40,915 nt of DNA from assembly GCA_018303725.1 (NCBI GenBank), contig JAGVXP010000054.1, positions 1 through 40,915 of the forward strand, in the 5' to 3' direction. Of the stretch, positions 1 through 6,073 are shown piece by piece. The stretch is from Candidatus Woesearchaeota archaeon. GTDB lineage: Archaea > Nanobdellota > Nanobdellia > Woesearchaeales > JAGVXP01. How positions within the stretch are numbered: the stretch's first letter is position 1; the number at the start of each line of letters is the position of its first letter. The position numbers and the translations under genes were made by a program. Below the pieces are notes generated by a model, which did not search any database, had not been told where the DNA came from, and worked only from the letters and a program-made list of their open reading frames with translations.

Positions 1-1659
1 AGAATATCCAATGACTTGCTTTGTAGGTAGAGTCTGTTTTTGTTTTAGGATGTTTTCTAAAGAATCTCCTTTGATATATTCGATTCGGAGAGCAGTATTA
101 CGCCTAGGCTCTCCTTTAAATTTCACTACATTTTTTTGCTTTCCTTGATATTTTTCTTGAACTTTTTTAAGTAGGTTGTATTCTCGATTGATTTGTTGTG
201 AGAATTTCCAAGCAATTACCTCTTTCGTAAAATGGTGTTTATGTAATAAAATTACTGCAGAAGTACCTGTTCCTATAAGGGTGTATTCGTGGTTGTTAAA
301 TCCTATGATATCACTTATATTCTTAAACAGTACATAAAATTCTTCTTCTTGTTCTTTTGAGATTTTATCAGGTGTAAGGCCAATTGCACATAACTTAGCA
401 GGTACTGTTATCTCTAATCGCTTATCATATTTGTCTGCTTCTTCTGGGGATACCTTAGCTTTGACAAACTCTCTAATATCCCAACCGTGGAATCTTCCAC
501 TATACAGATTTACTTTTTCTGGAGACATCTTAGCTTCAACAAACTGTACTATATCTATTCCATTAAACCTTTTGTCGTATTGCTCTGCTTCTTCTATTGG
601 AATATTGTTAAAAATTAACCACCAAATATCTACCCTGTCAAATCTTTTGTCAAATCTATTTGCTGTTTCAGGTGGAATATCTCGCTCTAATGATTTTATA
701 ATCTCTTGATAGCCAAATCGTTGATCAAATCTATTTGCTGTTTCAGGTGGGATGCCAGCTTTTGTTAATTCCATTATTTCGTAGCTACTAAATCGCTCAC
801 TATACCGATCTGCTTCCTTTGAGGAAACATTAGCTTGAAATAAGTTGAGGATATCCGATACCTTAAACCTTTGGCTATATCCATCTGCTTGTTGTTGAGT
901 TATCCCGCTTCTAAACAAGAATGCAATATCAGCTCCACTAAATCTTTGGCTATATCCATCTGCTTGTTGTGGGGTTATTCCACTTTTAAATAAGAATGAA
1001 ATACCATACCCATCAAATCTTTGATTATATTCATCTGCTTTTTCTGGAGGGCATCCTCCTTTCACTAAGCTCATAACATCCTTTACACTAAATCTTTGAC
1101 TATACTCATCTACTTGTTGTTGAGTTATCCCGCTTCTAAACAAGAATGCAATATCGGCTCCACTAAACCTTTGACTATATTGGTCTGCTTGTTGTTGAGT
1201 TATTCCCCCTTTAACCAAATGTAGAACATCAAATGCATCAAACCTTTGACTGTATTCATCTGCTTGTTGCGGAGAACATCTTTCTCTCACTAAAATCATA
1301 ATATCGATTCCACTAAATCTTTGATTGTATCCATCTACTTGTTGTTGAGTTATCCCGCTTCTAAACAAGAATGCAATATCGGCTCCACTAAACCTTTGAC
1401 TATATTGGTCTGCTTGTTGCGGAGAACATTCTCTCTGTTTTAGATATTTGATTCCTTCTGCACTAAATCTTGAGTTGTACTGATTTGCTTTTTCAGGAGC
1501 AATATCATCCCAAACAAGACCCACAATATCTTTTGCACTAAACCTTAAGTTAAATTTATTTGCACAAGATAAGGGAATTCCTGCTCGTTCTAGTTCGCTT
1601 AAATCCTGTTTGCTAAACCTTTTATCATACTCTTCTTGTGTATTATCATCTAGGGCCAT
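1..1659 (-). CDS. 25-residue-repeat protein with C-terminal protein-kinase-like domain (partial, runs off left edge)
   Basis: The minus strand is open from an ATG at 1659 to the window edge (553 codons, no stop). Residues 11-433 are about 17 units of 25 residues (first unit 23) with a pattern like YxxRFsxxDIxxLxxxGIxpxxA, each probably a helical hairpin in a solenoid. From about residue 455 a kinase N-lobe begins: a glycine-rich IGTGTSA, an AWKF lysine near 485 matching the ATP-binding Lys, and a following REYNLL helix matching the alpha-C Glu. The catalytic loop lies outside the window, so activity cannot be judged. The start overlaps the end of the upstream kinase gene by 14 bp, suggesting translational coupling. 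I do not recognise the repeat family. The reading frame is certain; the kinase call is likely. Confidence 0.85.
   Translation of the reverse strand, partial: MALDDNTQEEYDKRFSKQDLSELERAGIPLSCANKFNLRFSAKDIVGLVWDDIAPEKANQYNSRFSAEGIKYLKQRECSPQQADQYSQRFSGADIAFLFRSGITQQQVDGYNQRFSGIDIMILVRERCSPQQADEYSQRFDAFDVLHLVKGGITQQQADQYSQRFSGADIAFLFRSGITQQQVDEYSQRFSVKDVMSLVKGGCPPEKADEYNQRFDGYGISFLFKSGITPQQADGYSQRFSGADIAFLFRSGITQQQADGYSQRFKVSDILNLFQANVSSKEADRYSERFSSYEIMELTKAGIPPETANRFDQRFGYQEIIKSLERDIPPETANRFDKRFDRVDIWWLIFNNIPIEEAEQYDKRFNGIDIVQFVEAKMSPEKVNLYSGRFHGWDIREFVKAKVSPEEADKYDKRLEITVPAKLCAIGLTPDKISKEQEEEFYVLFKNISDIIGFNNHEYTLIGTGTSAVILLHKHHFTKEVIAWKFSQQINREYNLLKKVQEKYQGKQKNVVKFKGEPRRNTALRIEYIKGDSLENILKQKQTLPTKQVIGYS
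361..1629 (-). repeat. Coding tandem repeats of 75 bp
   Basis: About 17 in-frame units of 75 bp encode the 25-residue protein repeats. Some are nearly identical at DNA level: 1107-1194 and 1332-1419 match over 88 bp and are exactly 225 bp (three units) apart. A further copy of the same unit type begins near 901. Units toward the kinase end are more diverged. This points to recent expansion by recombination of a three-unit block. Confidence 0.85.
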
Positions 1660-3538
1660 TTTTGTACTCTGGGAAAAAATTATGGATCAAGTTTTCATGA
1701 TCCGTTTTTATTCCATTAAAAATATAGTATTCACCATCCGACATTCTACTTAGCCTTTCTTTTGGATTTTTACTAAATGCTATTGCAGCAGTATAAGATA
1801 GGTGAGTACCAAAACATTTTTCCCATAAATCATATTCTTCTGCTTTTCTTCTAGCATTGATTGCTCTTTGGAATATAGCGCTATTTTGTATACTCTTCAT
1901 ACTATCAAATTTAGTTTGACTAAGAACCTCATAAAATGCTCTTTCATATCTTTCTATAGCTTTGACATATTCGTCATAAGGCATTGATCCATCTTCTGGT
2001 GGTTTCTCTAGACCTTCAACTTTAAATGGTAATTCACCAGTTAATATCCTCCAAGCACAAACACCCAATGCCCAGATATCCCCTGCTTTTAATGCTTCAA
2101 CATCGTGACTTAATGGATCAACATGGTGGGGGTGCCATGGGAATAGTTCAGGAGCTCTATAATATATAGCTTTTGTATCACAAAGAGCTGAGTATATTCC
2201 ATAATCTGTTAAATAAACAACCTTTTCTTCGTCTACCATCACATTTTTTAAAGCTAAATCCCCATGGTAGTGTCCGTTAGGATATTTATCATCTTTTCTT
2301 GAATGAAGAATTGATATTAATCTAGCTGTTTCATAAAGATAAGGTTGTGCCATTTTCCATGGTATTATATGTCTATGTTCTTTCTCGTATCCTTCAACTA
2401 GTTGTTGTAATGTTTTTACTAGCTTTTTCTCAACAATAACAAGTTTGCCTCCTTCGCTATATGAATACCTAAATGATTGTAAACCCTTAGTTCCAGTCTC
2501 AAAACCATATTCCCTGATAGAAGCACTTCTTTGATCTTCTCGACCCATTAATTCTTTGGATGTTAATCCTTTTGCTTCTAAGATCTGTTTTCCTCTTGGG
2601 CTTAAATGAATAACCTTTACAGCATGCTCTTGACCCCACCTTTGGTGGATTCCACTATAAGCCACTTTGTAAGCTCCTTTTCCTAAAATGTGCGTTAATA
2701 AGTGATCTCTTGTTGTTTCTTCAGCACATTGTGCCATTTCCTCCAAATCTTTTACTTTTCCTGTTTTAAGAAGTGTTGTTAATTTTTCATAATCTCTTTT
2801 TGGGTTCTGAACAAATTTTTTTAGTTCTGTGATAATATCTTCTTCTGACCTAAATGGTTGTGTTTTATCATTACTAAGATGAACATATTTTGAGTTTAGG
2901 TAGCAGTTGATGAAGTTGTATTCTTCATCTTTAATTGCTACTAAAAATTTGTGGGTTATAGTAGTTGTTAGGTATCCTAGTGATTCGCCTATTTCCCTTT
3001 TAACCAATACATATCCATCATTTAACCCTTTTTTGTATAATTCAACAAATTTACCTGGGTTGATAGCGGCTAATGATTTTAATGATTTAGCTATTTCGTA
3101 TCTAACATCTTCATTTGGATTACTCATCCCTTGTTCGTATGATTCAACAAATTTATTTTGGTTTGTAGCAGTCAATTCCCAAGATGATTCATTTACTCTT
3201 TCAAAAACTCCCTGGATATAAGAAATCAACCCTTTGTCATAGGATTCAACATCTTCATCAGATTTTGCATTATTCAATACTTCTAATGGTTTTGCTTTTC
3301 TTCTTACAAATTCTTTTTCATTGTTCTTTATTAGTCCTATAGTAGATTCACTTAATCTAAATTTTTTACATAATTCAGTAAACCTATTAGGCATTACGGT
3401 ATGTAATGTTCCTAATGATTCGATTGTTGCTAGTTTAATCCATCCATAAAAATCACTTAAACCTTCTTCATACAAACTAATAACCAAAACTCTTCTCCTT
3501 TCCCTCTCAACCTCATTCAAAATATGCTCAATGCCCAT
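1646..3538 (-). CDS. HEAT-like-repeat protein kinase
   Basis: A 630-residue protein. Residues about 20-200 hold helical repeats of roughly 35 residues resembling HEAT repeats, with recurring GLxxxxxxVxxEIxxSL and NxFVExY patterns. The kinase domain starts near 283: glycine loop LGKGAYKV (285-292), AVK lysine K308, catalytic loop HGDLALKN with D427 and N432, DYG in place of DFG (D445), APE (462-464) and the conserved D487 of AGDIWALG. All core catalytic residues are present, so an active Ser/Thr-type kinase is expected. HGD replaces HRD. No membrane segment is evident. The start overlaps the small RHH gene upstream by 11 bp and the end overlaps the next kinase-like gene by 14 bp, so the three look like one operon. 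The substrate is unknown. Confidence 0.88.
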   Translation of the reverse strand: MGIEHILNEVERERRRVLVISLYEEGLSDFYGWIKLATIESLGTLHTVMPNRFTELCKKFRLSESTIGLIKNNEKEFVRRKAKPLEVLNNAKSDEDVESYDKGLISYIQGVFERVNESSWELTATNQNKFVESYEQGMSNPNEDVRYEIAKSLKSLAAINPGKFVELYKKGLNDGYVLVKREIGESLGYLTTTITHKFLVAIKDEEYNFINCYLNSKYVHLSNDKTQPFRSEEDIITELKKFVQNPKRDYEKLTTLLKTGKVKDLEEMAQCAEETTRDHLLTHILGKGAYKVAYSGIHQRWGQEHAVKVIHLSPRGKQILEAKGLTSKELMGREDQRSASIREYGFETGTKGLQSFRYSYSEGGKLVIVEKKLVKTLQQLVEGYEKEHRHIIPWKMAQPYLYETARLISILHSRKDDKYPNGHYHGDLALKNVMVDEEKVVYLTDYGIYSALCDTKAIYYRAPELFPWHPHHVDPLSHDVEALKAGDIWALGVCAWRILTGELPFKVEGLEKPPEDGSMPYDEYVKAIERYERAFYEVLSQTKFDSMKSIQNSAIFQRAINARRKAEEYDLWEKCFGTHLSYTAAIAFSKNPKERLSRMSDGEYYIFNGIKTDHENLIHNFFPEYKNGPR

Positions 3539-3668
3539 TTTCTCTCAAAAACTTCTTTATAGCTTCTTCTACCAAGTGTGATTTATTTCGGAAAGAACTG
3601 TCTTCTAGGATTTCATGTATTTTAGCTATTGTTTTCTCATCCAAGGAAACACTAAAAACCTGTTTCAT
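3528..3668 (-). CDS. Small ribbon-helix-helix (CopG/Arc-like) DNA-binding protein
   Basis: A 46-residue ORF starting at ATG 3668. It begins MKQVFSVSLDEKTIAKIHEI, a typical RHH beta strand with alternating residues and first helix, followed by a turn with RNKSHLVEEAIKKFL, the usual second helix. It is the first gene of the leftward operon; its TGA at 3528-3530 lies inside the start of the kinase gene (11 bp overlap). RHH proteins dimerise and commonly repress their own promoters. The inverted repeat directly before its start is a natural candidate operator. It could instead be an antitoxin-like partner of the kinases. The RHH assignment is confident; its role is inferred from position. Confidence 0.8.
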   Translation of the reverse strand: MKQVFSVSLDEKTIAKIHEILEDSSFRNKSHLVEEAIKKFLRENGH

Positions 3669-3702
3669 AATTCTTATTAGGAATTATTAAGCCTATTTAA
3701 AT
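3669..3702 (-). promoter_or_regulatory. Promoter and possible RHH operator of the kinase operon
   Basis: Reading leftward, an ATTTAAATA box (3694-3702) lies about 30 bp before the ATG at 3668, which fits a leaderless archaeal transcript. Between box and start is a perfect inverted repeat, AATTC (3669-3673), 7-bp spacer, GAATT (3681-3685), where a repressor would block initiation. The operator role is inference. Confidence 0.5.
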
Positions 3703-3752
3703 TTTTCTTTTTTGACTACTAAAAAGTAACTAACAGTTAATAACCAAAAACC

Positions 3753-3854
3753 ATATAAACAAGAATAAATCCATTGCTTATTATGGATTTTAAACAAAAA
3801 ATAATTGATATTTTAAAAAAAGCAACAAACCAAAAATTTAAAGGAAAAGTTTAA
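3753..3854 (+). pseudogene. Truncated second copy of the argS promoter and 5' end
   Basis: An ATATAAAC box (3753-3760) is followed exactly 30 bp later by ATG 3783 and a 23-codon ORF whose first 18 residues read MDFKQKIIDILKKATNQK. The true argS has the same ATATAAAC box 30 bp before ATG 4406 and begins MADFKQEIINILKKATNQK. A 24-bp block is identical (3813-3836 and 4439-4462). After codon 18 homology stops and a TAA follows at 3852-3854. The other codons differ mostly at third positions, so this is not a fresh duplication. It is best read as a relic argS start left of the toxin-antitoxin cassette. Confidence 0.8.
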
Positions 3855-3890: not shown

Positions 3891-4076
3891 ATGAGCGAAA
3901 CAGTTTTTCAAAAACAGGTATTAACTAAACTGGGGAACATGGAAAAAACTATAAACTACATTATGGAGTATATAGAAGACTTAAAATTGAGCGAAGATGA
4001 TAAAAAGGCTTTAAAAGAGGCTTTAAAAGAAGAAAAAGAAGGGAAGCTTCTAACTAAAAAACAGGTTTTTGGTTAA
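3891..4076 (+). CDS. Antitoxin of a RelE/ParE-type pair
   Basis: A 61-residue acidic, helical protein (MSETVFQKQVLTKLGNMEKT...) placed directly before a RelE-like toxin, as expected of an antitoxin. I chose ATG 3891 because GGTGAG lies just upstream; an in-frame GTG at 3882 would add three residues. The N-terminal half could form a DNA-binding or dimerising helix pair and the lysine/glutamate-rich C-terminus would wrap the toxin. I see no clear RHH or HTH signature, so the assignment rests mostly on context. Its TAA is separated from the toxin ATG by one base. Confidence 0.7.
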   Translation: MSETVFQKQVLTKLGNMEKTINYIMEYIEDLKLSEDDKKALKEALKEEKEGKLLTKKQVFG

Positions 4077-4077
4077 G

Positions 4078-4347
4078 ATGGCTCTTTTTCCAGCAGAATT
4101 CTCAACAAGAGTTAGTAAATATATCAATAATCTGGATAAGGTAATGAAGAATAGAATCAAAGAGAAAATTGAAAAGCTTGAAGAAAATCCTTTCCCGCAG
4201 GAAGTTGAAAGGGTTGAGGATTATAAAGATGAAAAAGTCTTTAGAGTCAGAGTTGGAAACCAAAGAATTCTTTATATTGTTAGATACAGCCCAAATAAGC
4301 TCATTATAACCAAAGTTGACAAAAGACCAAGAATTTATGATAGGTAG
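4078..4347 (+). CDS. RelE/ParE-superfamily toxin
   Basis: An 89-residue protein with the RelE/ParE fold pattern: an N-terminal strand (ALFPAEFSTRV), a helix pair ending KIEKLEENPFPQE, then EDYKDEKVFRVRVGNQRILY and a closing strand IITKVDKRPRIYDR. The FRVRVGNQRILYIV segment is typical of RelE toxins, which cut mRNA on the ribosome. I chose ATG 4078, one base after the antitoxin stop; an in-frame TTG at 4069 is less likely. The cassette lies between two copies of the argS 5' region. The family call is strong; mRNA cleavage follows from the family. Confidence 0.85.
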   Translation: MALFPAEFSTRVSKYINNLDKVMKNRIKEKIEKLEENPFPQEVERVEDYKDEKVFRVRVGNQRILYIVRYSPNKLIITKVDKRPRIYDR

Positions 4348-4405: not shown

Positions 4406-6073
4406 ATGGCTGACTTCAAACAGGAAATCATAAATATATTAAAAAAAGCAACAAACCAAAAAGAGATTGAAGTAGAAGTGCCTCCAGACCCTTCAATGGG
4501 GGATTATGCTTTTCCTTGCTTTGGTTTAGCTAAGGTTTATAAGAAAAATCCTGTTGATATTGCTAAAGAGCTGAAAGAAAAGATTAAAGAAGAGGGCGTT
4601 ATAGAAAGGATTGAAATAAAGGGGCCATATCTTAATTTTTTTGTTAATAAAAACAAGATAATTGAAAATACGCTTAAGAAAATAGCAAAAGAGAAAGGTA
4701 AATATGGCTCTTCTAATGCTGGCAAGGGAAAAAAGGCGTTAGTTGAGCACACATCTATCAATCCCAATGCCAGCCCCCATGTAGGCAGGGCAAGAAATGC
4801 CTTAATCGGAGATTCTATAACAAGGCTTTTGAAATTTCAGGGCTATAAAGTTGAAACACATTATTTTGTCAATGATGTTGGAAAGCAGATTGCAATGCTG
4901 GTTTTAGGCTGCAAAGGGAAGGATGTTAAATTTAATGATTTGTTAAAAATTTATATTGGCATCAACAAGCAATTAGAAGAAAAACCCGAGCTGGAAAAAG
5001 ATGTTTTTGAGCTATTGCATAAATTGGAGCAAAAAGACAAGAAGGTAATCAGTGATTTTAAAAAGGTTGTAAACATATGCATTAAAGGGCAAACATCCAT
5101 TCTTTCTGAGCTGGGCATTAGTTATGATAAATTTGACTATGAAAGTGATTATTTATGGAAAGAGCTAACAAATGAAGTTTTGAAGAAATTAGAAAAAACA
5201 AAAAAATTATTTACAGATGAAGAAGGAAGATTAGTTTTAGACCAGAAAGAATACAATTTGGCAATGAAAAGCCCTGTTTTGGTTTTGACTAGAGCTGATA
5301 AAACCTCTCTTTATCCTTTGAGGGATATGGCTTACACCATTGAGAAGATAAACAAAGGGTTTCATAAGAATATTGTTGTTTTAGGAGAGGACCAAAAGCT
5401 GTATTTCCAGCAGCTAAAGGCCGGCTTGAATTTATTAGGCTATGAAGCGCCTGAAGTAATCCATTATTCCTTTGTTTTGTTAACAGAAGGCAAAATGAGC
5501 ACAAGAAAGGGCAATTTGGTTTTACTGGAAGAGTTTATGGGGGAAGCATTGGATAAAGCAAAGAGCGAAATAAAAAAGAGGCATGAAAAGGTTGATGAGA
5601 AAGCTGCCAAAAAAATAGCTTATGGAGCAATAAAGTATTCTATCCTAAGGGTTTCTGCTGAAAAGAATGTGGTCTTTAACTGGGAGCAGGCACTGAATTT
5701 TGAGGGTGAATCGGGGCCTTATCTACAGTATGCTTATGTCAGGATTAACTCTATACTACAGAAATATGGAAAAAAGATAGATGAGAAAGCTGATTTTTCA
5801 CTGCTAAAGCAAAAAGAGGAAATTGAATTGGTAAAAAGGCTTTCTGATTTTTCTGGTATAGTAGAAGATGCAACAAAACAATTAAAGCCGCATATAATTT
5901 CGAATTATTTAACTGAATTAGCACAGTTATTTTCTGAATTTTACCATAACTGCCAAATCCTTAAGGAAGAAGAAGATTTAAAGAAAGCCAGATTGTTGTT
6001 AGCTGATTGCACAAAACAGGTTTTAGGGAATGGGTTGGGTTTGTTGGGGATTGAAGTTTTAGATGAAATGTGA
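4406..6073 (+). CDS. argS: Arginyl-tRNA synthetase
   Basis: Class I synthetase that attaches arginine to tRNA-Arg, 555 residues, near the usual length. It has the N-terminal Add1-type domain (about 1-100), HIGH-type motif HVGR (125-128) preceded by SINPNASP, the ArgRS segment YFVNDVGKQIA, KMSKS-type motif KMSTR (363-367), and a C-terminal helical anticodon-binding DALR domain with YLQYAYVRI. I chose ATG 4406 because the TATA box 30 bp upstream matches the local leaderless pattern and because the relic copy starts at the equivalent ATG; GTG 4397 is an alternative. A tRNA-Arg(UCG) gene, one of its substrates, lies at 14227. It ends directly against the convergent gene at 6074. Confidence 0.97.
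   Translation: MADFKQEIINILKKATNQKEIEVEVPPDPSMGDYAFPCFGLAKVYKKNPVDIAKELKEKIKEEGVIERIEIKGPYLNFFVNKNKIIENTLKKIAKEKGKYGSSNAGKGKKALVEHTSINPNASPHVGRARNALIGDSITRLLKFQGYKVETHYFVNDVGKQIAMLVLGCKGKDVKFNDLLKIYIGINKQLEEKPELEKDVFELLHKLEQKDKKVISDFKKVVNICIKGQTSILSELGISYDKFDYESDYLWKELTNEVLKKLEKTKKLFTDEEGRLVLDQKEYNLAMKSPVLVLTRADKTSLYPLRDMAYTIEKINKGFHKNIVVLGEDQKLYFQQLKAGLNLLGYEAPEVIHYSFVLLTEGKMSTRKGNLVLLEEFMGEALDKAKSEIKKRHEKVDEKAAKKIAYGAIKYSILRVSAEKNVVFNWEQALNFEGESGPYLQYAYVRINSILQKYGKKIDEKADFSLLKQKEEIELVKRLSDFSGIVEDATKQLKPHIISNYLTELAQLFSEFYHNCQILKEEEDLKKARLLLADCTKQVLGNGLGLLGIEVLDEM

What the first reader, a model, noticed from the sequence alone, without database searches (positions are those of the whole stretch)
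1..3702. Three-gene operon: RHH regulator plus two different repeat-kinase fusions
A 46-residue RHH protein, a HEAT-like-repeat kinase with intact catalytic residues, and a 25-residue-repeat kinase-like protein overlap by 11 and 14 bp. Protein kinases fused to repeat solenoids, paired and under a tiny RHH protein, suggest a self-regulated recognition-and-phosphorylation module, perhaps for cell contact, defence or regulated toxicity. I know of no described system with this exact composition; its novelty is untested.
Basis: partly seen in the sequence, partly recalled or inferred. Interest (0 to 1): 0.85.

Follow-up and report, generated by a model that had tools for sequence, protein, structure and literature searches.

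The report
Archaeal RHH-led repeat-kinase operon
In a tiny uncultured DPANN archaeon, a miniature DNA-binding protein leads an operon of two sensor-like protein kinases; the same arrangement, with the same promoter signals and two more regulator genes beside it, recurs in several distant relatives, which points to an undescribed self-controlled signalling module.

Summary
A 46-aa RHH gene, a 630-aa helical-repeat kinase and a 25-aa-repeat kinase overlap by 11 and 14 bp. The left gene is cut by the contig end. Its missing C-lobe, with HRD...N, starts contig C6 of the same genome (12-bp in-frame overlap), giving a ~709-aa protein. The genome is a Woesearchaeota-like DPANN MAG.

Near-identical tiny RHH genes sit directly upstream of, and overlapping, kinase operons in other families of the order. 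The eight best RHH hits in 353 genomes all lie in kinase or AbrB-type loci. Their promoters share a TATA box followed by TTAATA-N4-TTAATA before the ATG: all 10 examined score at least 11/12, against 2 of 650 control genes. RHH autoregulation is therefore likely.

Kinase loci usually also carry a convergent AbrB-type gene and a divergent Lrp-type gene, which here lie on C6, outside the window. The RHH is not universal (about 8 of 23 loci), and tiny RHHs also lead other operons.

The 25-aa repeat is predicted as a two-helix solenoid with no close PDB match. Best reading: a self-repressing sensor-kinase operon wired to local transcription factors. Defence, toxin or host-directed roles are unsupported. 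No substrate or signal is known.

The parts
3528..3668 (-). Tiny ribbon-helix-helix (CopG-type) protein, 46 aa, first gene of the operon
   Evidence: RHH_1 above cut-off; 52-65% identical to RHH genes in the same position in six other genomes
1646..3538 (-). Helical-repeat (HEAT-like) protein kinase, 630 aa, start overlaps the RHH gene by 11 bp
   Evidence: Pkinase 52.6 bits; G-loop LGKGAY, AVK, HGDLALKN, DYG, APE present; N-terminal ERERRxxLV family shared with other loci
2018..2692 (-). Kinase domain of the 630-aa protein
   Evidence: PF00069 match placed at these bases
2729..3538 (-). N-terminal helical-repeat region (about residues 1-270)
   Evidence: Internal repeats visible in the sequence and homologues in L138, L129, L128, L023; fold not confirmed
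1..1659 (-). RF-repeat kinase, first 553 of about 709 residues; cut by the contig end, continues at G000:C6:1-483 (+)
   Evidence: 12-bp in-frame overlap ATTGGATATTCT; family profile A1 positions 10-138 here and 136-296 on C6
415..1629 (-). Array of 25-residue two-helix repeats (16 units, 17 [YF]xxR[FL] motifs)
   Evidence: Exact 25-aa spacing; AlphaFold2 pLDDT about 95 solenoid
1..285 (-). Kinase N-lobe of the RF-repeat kinase (G-loop GTGTSAV, IAWK lysine)
   Evidence: PF00069 positions 4-100; residues located
3675..3690 (-). Putative RHH operator: TTAATAATTCCTAATA, tandem hexamers 10 bp apart, directly before the RHH start codon
   Evidence: 11/12 match to TTAATA-N4-TTAATA; 10/10 RHH promoters of the group reach 11 or more versus 2/650 control genes
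3694..3702 (-). TATA-box-like element ATTTAAATA
   Evidence: Conserved position in nine aligned promoters
3715..3730 (-). Distal palindrome GTTACTTTTTAGTAGT (ACTACT-N4-AGTAGT type)
   Evidence: 10/12 match at -62, same place in most RHH promoters; also found before other genes, so not RHH-specific

Best explanation
This is a self-repressed sensor-kinase operon of Woesearchaeota-type DPANN archaea. Inferred mechanism: (1) the 46-aa RHH dimerises and binds the tandem TTAATA hexamers between the TATA box and the start codon, shutting off its own transcript, which also carries the kinases (translationally coupled by gene overlap). (2) The helical solenoids at the N-termini of the kinases bind partner proteins or ligands, and binding or clustering switches on the C-terminal Ser/Thr kinase domains. 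(3) The kinases phosphorylate each other and/or the neighbouring DNA-binding proteins (AbrB-type, Lrp-type, RHH), changing transcription. Shown by sequence: the genes, the overlaps, the catalytic residues, recurrence of the locus, the conserved promoter. Inferred: RHH binding, signal sensing, phosphorylation targets.
For: Gene order and overlaps. Left kinase completed with HRDLHLGN on contig C6. Near-identical tiny RHH directly upstream of, and overlapping, the first kinase gene in G080, G108, G318, G324, G325 and G350, and a more divergent RHH in front of three kinase genes in G309. The eight best of all RHH hits in 353 genomes lie in kinase or AbrB-type loci. Promoter block TATA + TTAATA-N4-TTAATA in 10/10 versus 2/650 controls, and again in three loci not used to define it (L156, L164, L169). 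AbrB-type subfamily: kinase within 4 kb in 18/24 loci and Lrp-type gene beside it in most, versus 2/20 and 0/20 for paralogues (Lrp non-seed test p=5e-5). Solenoid predicted at high confidence. Precedent that archaeal Hanks-type kinases act in a transcription-regulator network: ArnC/ArnD in Sulfolobus (PMC5300886, abstract seen).
Against: No binding or kinase activity measured. RHH absent from about two thirds of kinase loci with a readable upstream side. The operator consensus was defined by eye on the same promoters; only three of about a dozen held-out RHH leaders show it at the same place. The left kinase reads DLH where most relatives read DLG, so its activity is uncertain. No phosphosite or substrate is known. 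The AbrB-type protein's C-terminal domain matches no Pfam family convincingly (PhoU in 1 of 12 members at E=0.03).
Confidence: 0.55

Rival explanations
1. Toxin-antitoxin or anti-virus conflict module: a kinase is the toxic or abortive effector, the solenoids recognise an invader, and the RHH and AbrB-type proteins act as antitoxin-like repressors.
For: RHH and AbrB/MazE folds are antitoxin families. Distant kinase-domain similarity to MAD6 and PD-T4-6 defence kinases. Patchy distribution (27/353 genomes) and recent repeat amplification fit arms-race evolution. HipA shows kinases can be toxins (PMC8262856, abstract).
Against: The kinase matches are generic and far below family cut-offs (MAD6 NF047741: 33.5 versus 460 bits). 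The 46-aa RHH has no C-terminal toxin-binding segment. No relative was found in 2.9 million viral contigs by pattern scans. No known defence genes were recognised beside the loci.
Confidence: 0.2
2. Symbiosis or cell-surface module: the kinases act on partner-cell proteins or at the cell envelope, with the RF-repeat as an adhesive or recognition fold.
For: The same RF-repeats occur in predicted lipoproteins and giant secreted ORFs of related genomes (L065, L066, L211). One partner kinase carries PKD/Ig-like domains (L063). N-terminal M-x-[LI]-[ED] motif enriched in kinases (23/57 versus 19/512). DPANN archaea are often episymbionts (established knowledge).
Against: No signal peptide is evident on the window kinases. 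The N-terminal motif is not significant in non-kinase genes of the loci (p=0.21). Neighbouring genes are transcription factors, not secretion parts.
Confidence: 0.15
3. The RHH is a generic operon leader of this order and its union with kinases is incidental: an autoregulatory cassette that sits in front of many unrelated genes.
For: Tiny RHHs with lower scores lead operons of methyltransferase-like, membrane and phosphotransferase-like proteins, and tandem RHH plus membrane-protein arrays occur (L184, L185).
Against: The eight top-scoring RHHs all sit in kinase or AbrB-type loci. Several of the other cargoes also carry a kinase-like (APH/choline-kinase) domain and a convergent AbrB-type gene.
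Confidence: 0.1

Closest known systems
Hanks-type (eukaryote-like) Ser/Thr protein kinases of prokaryotes, e.g. PknB/Stk1, archaeal ArnC/ArnD
   Same: Catalytic domain family and motifs; sensor domain fused to a kinase domain; archaeal examples act in a transcription-regulator network (PMC5300886)
   Different: Two different solenoid kinases overlapping in one operon under a tiny RHH; 25-aa RF-repeat solenoid instead of PASTA, FHA or TPR; far below the PknB/PASTA equivalog cut-off (19.9 versus 450 bits)
RHH/CopG-type autoregulated operons (CopG, ParD, NikR kind)
   Same: RHH_1 fold match; tandem short operator-like repeats one helical turn apart in front of its own gene
   Different: Only 46-49 aa, no extra domain; leads kinases rather than a toxin, plasmid copy control or nickel uptake
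HipBA-type toxin-antitoxin kinases
   Same: DNA-binding repressor plus kinase in one operon
   Different: HipA family not matched; kinases are Hanks-type; regulator is RHH, not the HTH protein HipB; toxicity not shown
MADS MAD6, PD-T4-6 and BREX PglW defence kinases
   Same: Protein kinase domain, weak similarity
   Different: None of the partner genes of those systems was recognised in the locus; scores an order of magnitude below curated cut-offs where such exist

Membership tests
Hanks-type protein kinase (PF00069) | Profile match above the gathering score | tested here: met
   630-aa protein 52.6 bits versus cut-off 31.7; C-lobe of the RF-repeat kinase on C6 32.6 bits, its N-lobe 23.3 bits
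Hanks-type protein kinase (PF00069) | Catalytic residues: VAIK lysine, HRD aspartate, Asn, DFG aspartate | tested here: met
   630-aa: AVK, HGDLALKN, DYG. RF-repeat kinase: AWK, HRDLHLGN, DLH in place of DLG. The DFG aspartate is present in both; the glycine is lost in the second
RHH/CopG family (PF01402) | Profile match above the gathering score | tested here: met
   24.9 bits versus 20.5; 6 of 7 family members match at E<=0.1
RHH/CopG family (PF01402) | Binding to its own promoter | tested here: inconclusive
   Conserved tandem-hexamer site in front of the gene; binding not measurable here
Type II toxin-antitoxin system | Toxic effector neutralised by the co-encoded small protein | not testable with these tools
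   RHH of 46 aa has no visible neutralising tail; no assay
MADS / PD-T4-6 / BREX defence kinases | Full-length family match and partner genes | tested here: not met
   MAD6 33.5 versus 460 bits; PADLOC matches confined to the kinase region; no partner genes recognised
HEAT repeat proteins | HEAT profile match or solenoid fold | tested here: inconclusive
   No Pfam HEAT match; single-sequence structure failed; repeats visible by eye only
AbrB/MazE DNA-binding family (neighbour gene on C6) | PF04014 match | tested here: met
   All 12 aligned members match, best E=7.7e-9
PhoU | PhoU domain in the C-terminal half of the AbrB-type protein | tested here: not met
   1 of 12 members at E=0.034 only

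The most novel reading that the evidence does not exclude
A new class of archaeal phospho-signalling or conflict locus: a minimal RHH leader with its own conserved operator, a rapidly varying set of solenoid-kinase fusions (including a 25-residue RF-repeat solenoid with no close solved relative), and dedicated AbrB-type and Lrp-type regulators, spread patchily through the Woesearchaeota-type order, in which kinase cargo is exchanged while the regulatory frame is kept.
Probability: 0.35. Interest if true: 0.85.

Novelty: new variant of a known kind. Interest (0 to 1): 0.7.

Why it matters
DPANN archaea have very small genomes and almost nothing is known of how they sense partners, stress or viruses. 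In this genome the only two PF00069-family proteins that look like Hanks-type kinases are these two, in one operon (the other hits look like UbiB, Bud32 and RIO kinases; the MAG is about 81% complete). The find gives testable parts: a 46-aa repressor with a defined candidate operator, a new repeat solenoid that also appears in surface proteins, and a conserved set of regulators that are candidate kinase substrates.

Tried and rejected
Viral origin: pattern scans of viral contigs with both kinases and with the family alignment found nothing. Defence system filing: only weak generic kinase matches. 'PhoU' label for the AbrB-type protein: my first impression, not supported by Pfam. RHH as unrelated neighbour: I first took it as absent elsewhere, because my printed gene lists hid ORFs under 60 aa; a targeted scan corrected this. 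N-terminal tag shared by all cargo proteins: enriched in kinases but not significant in non-kinase cargo. Distal ACTACT-N4-AGTAGT palindrome as an RHH site: also found before other genes, so not RHH-specific. First guess for the proximal site, a TTAATAA-N2-TTATTAA palindrome, did not separate RHH promoters from controls and was replaced by the direct-repeat form, so that form was chosen after a failed one. Structure of the 630-aa kinase: single-sequence model failed. Structure of the joined 709-aa kinase was not attempted, as it is not read from one locus. Literature searches found no description of the locus.
Full report
OBSERVATION. RHH_1 and Pkinase match above their cut-offs. The 25-residue motif is exact in spacing, 17 times.

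THE CUT GENE. The window is the start of contig G000:C14. A PF00069 search of the same genome found the other half of a kinase at the very start of contig C6. The two ends share 12 bases, ATTGGATATTCT, in frame. The family profile A1 matches positions 10-138 on C14 and 136-296 on C6. The joined protein is about 709 aa with HRDLHLGN and DLH. The join is an inference from sequence; no read spans it.

WHAT LIES BEYOND. On C6 the kinase is followed by a convergent AbrB-type gene (486-1403) and a divergent Lrp/AsnC gene (1728-2195). Relatives of the RF-repeat kinase occur in 27 of 353 genomes of the order. In a phylum-wide sample the stringent profile found 16 of 371, 15 of them in this order. Named relatives are Candidatus Woesearchaeota, Nanoarchaeota or DPANN MAGs.

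THE CONSERVED LOCUS. I called genes in the relatives' loci and searched them with profiles of kinase, AbrB-type, Lrp-type and RHH proteins. In the best-scoring AbrB-type subfamily (24 loci), 18 have a kinase within 4 kb and most have an Lrp-type gene beside them. Among 20 paralogues fetched as controls, 2 have a kinase and none has the Lrp-type gene. Half of the 24 were used to build the profile; in the other 12 the numbers are 6 (kinase) and 8 (Lrp-type) (Fisher p=0.03 and 5e-5). The partner kinases vary widely in their N-terminal regions, and a HAD phosphatase-like gene sits in some loci. About two thirds of the kinase loci have two or more kinase genes (my count).

THE RHH. A PF01402 search of 27 genomes and an ORF scan showed a near-identical 46-49-aa RHH gene directly upstream of the first kinase gene in G080, G108, G318, G324, G325 and G350, with the RHH stop overlapping the kinase start; G309 has a more divergent one. 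By my count about 8 of 23 kinase loci with a readable upstream side have it. From the RHH side, the eight best hits in 353 genomes (over 93 bits) all lie in kinase or AbrB-type loci. Seven of them are the seeds of the profile; the eighth (G326:C192) was not a seed and has an AbrB-type and an Lrp-type gene but no recognised kinase. Lower hits lead other operons. Several of those encode proteins with an APH/choline-kinase-like domain and a convergent AbrB-type gene, which hints at a wider family of loci.

THE PROMOTER. Nine RHH promoters align with a TATA box and, between it and the ATG, TTAATA-N4-TTAATA. All 10 promoters examined score at least 11 of 12; 2 of 650 control genes do. A first guess, a palindrome, had not separated the two groups, so the direct repeat was the second form tried and was chosen after seeing these promoters; the p-value (1.6e-20) overstates the case, though the effect is large. 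The site reappears at -20/-21 in three RHH leaders not used to define it, with other downstream genes (L156, L164, L169); most other held-out leaders lack it. Short hexamers one helical turn apart are what RHH repressors of known type bind (established knowledge). A second palindrome at about -61 also occurs before other genes.

THE REPEATS. AlphaFold2 with 14 sequences predicts the RF-repeat as a two-helix solenoid at pLDDT about 95. Foldseek against PDB and viral models listed only kinases, matching the N-lobe part, none at E<=0.001. The same repeat occurs in predicted lipoproteins and giant ORFs of related genomes, so it may be a general recognition fold of this group. The DNA repeats suggest recent amplification.

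MECHANISM AND LIMITS. The best-supported reading is a self-repressed operon of solenoid-sensing kinases acting on local transcription factors. The promoter supports the first step; kinase motifs support catalysis, with doubt for the left protein (DLH). Signal, substrate and phenotype are unknown. The RHH is a frequent, not obligatory, part. Searches of the open-access library found no earlier description, which does not exclude one in subscription journals.

Noticed in passing
window 3784-3840 and 4406-4460: The start of argS appears duplicated; a two-gene module (60-aa protein plus ParE/RelE-like toxin, 3894-4347) lies between the copies, as if a small toxin-antitoxin cassette had inserted at the argS start.
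   Followed up: partly
L184 (G202:C62) and L185 (G194:C40): Tandem arrays, about 1 kb apart, of tiny RHH gene plus a roughly 280-aa variable membrane-like protein.
   Followed up: partly
L176, L177, L181, L183: Tiny RHH leader, then a large protein with an APH/choline-kinase-like domain, then a convergent AbrB-type gene: a possible sister type of the kinase loci.
   Followed up: partly
L210-L214, L071, L072 (G166:C7, G038:C25, G163:C17, G084:C18): Giant ORFs of about 6,000-10,000 aa; those of G166, G163 and G038 carry short runs or weak matches of the same 25-aa RF-repeat; some start with signal-like sequences.
   Followed up: partly
N-termini of kinases in L054-L064, L128, L129, L138 and window: Kinases with unrelated N-terminal domains often begin M-x-[LI]-[ED] (23 of 57 versus 19 of 512 other genes); unexplained.
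   Followed up: partly
L141 (G000:C43): In the same genome a second AbrB-type gene faces a row of paralogues, most beginning LEPRIESSLLY, of unknown function.
   Followed up: no
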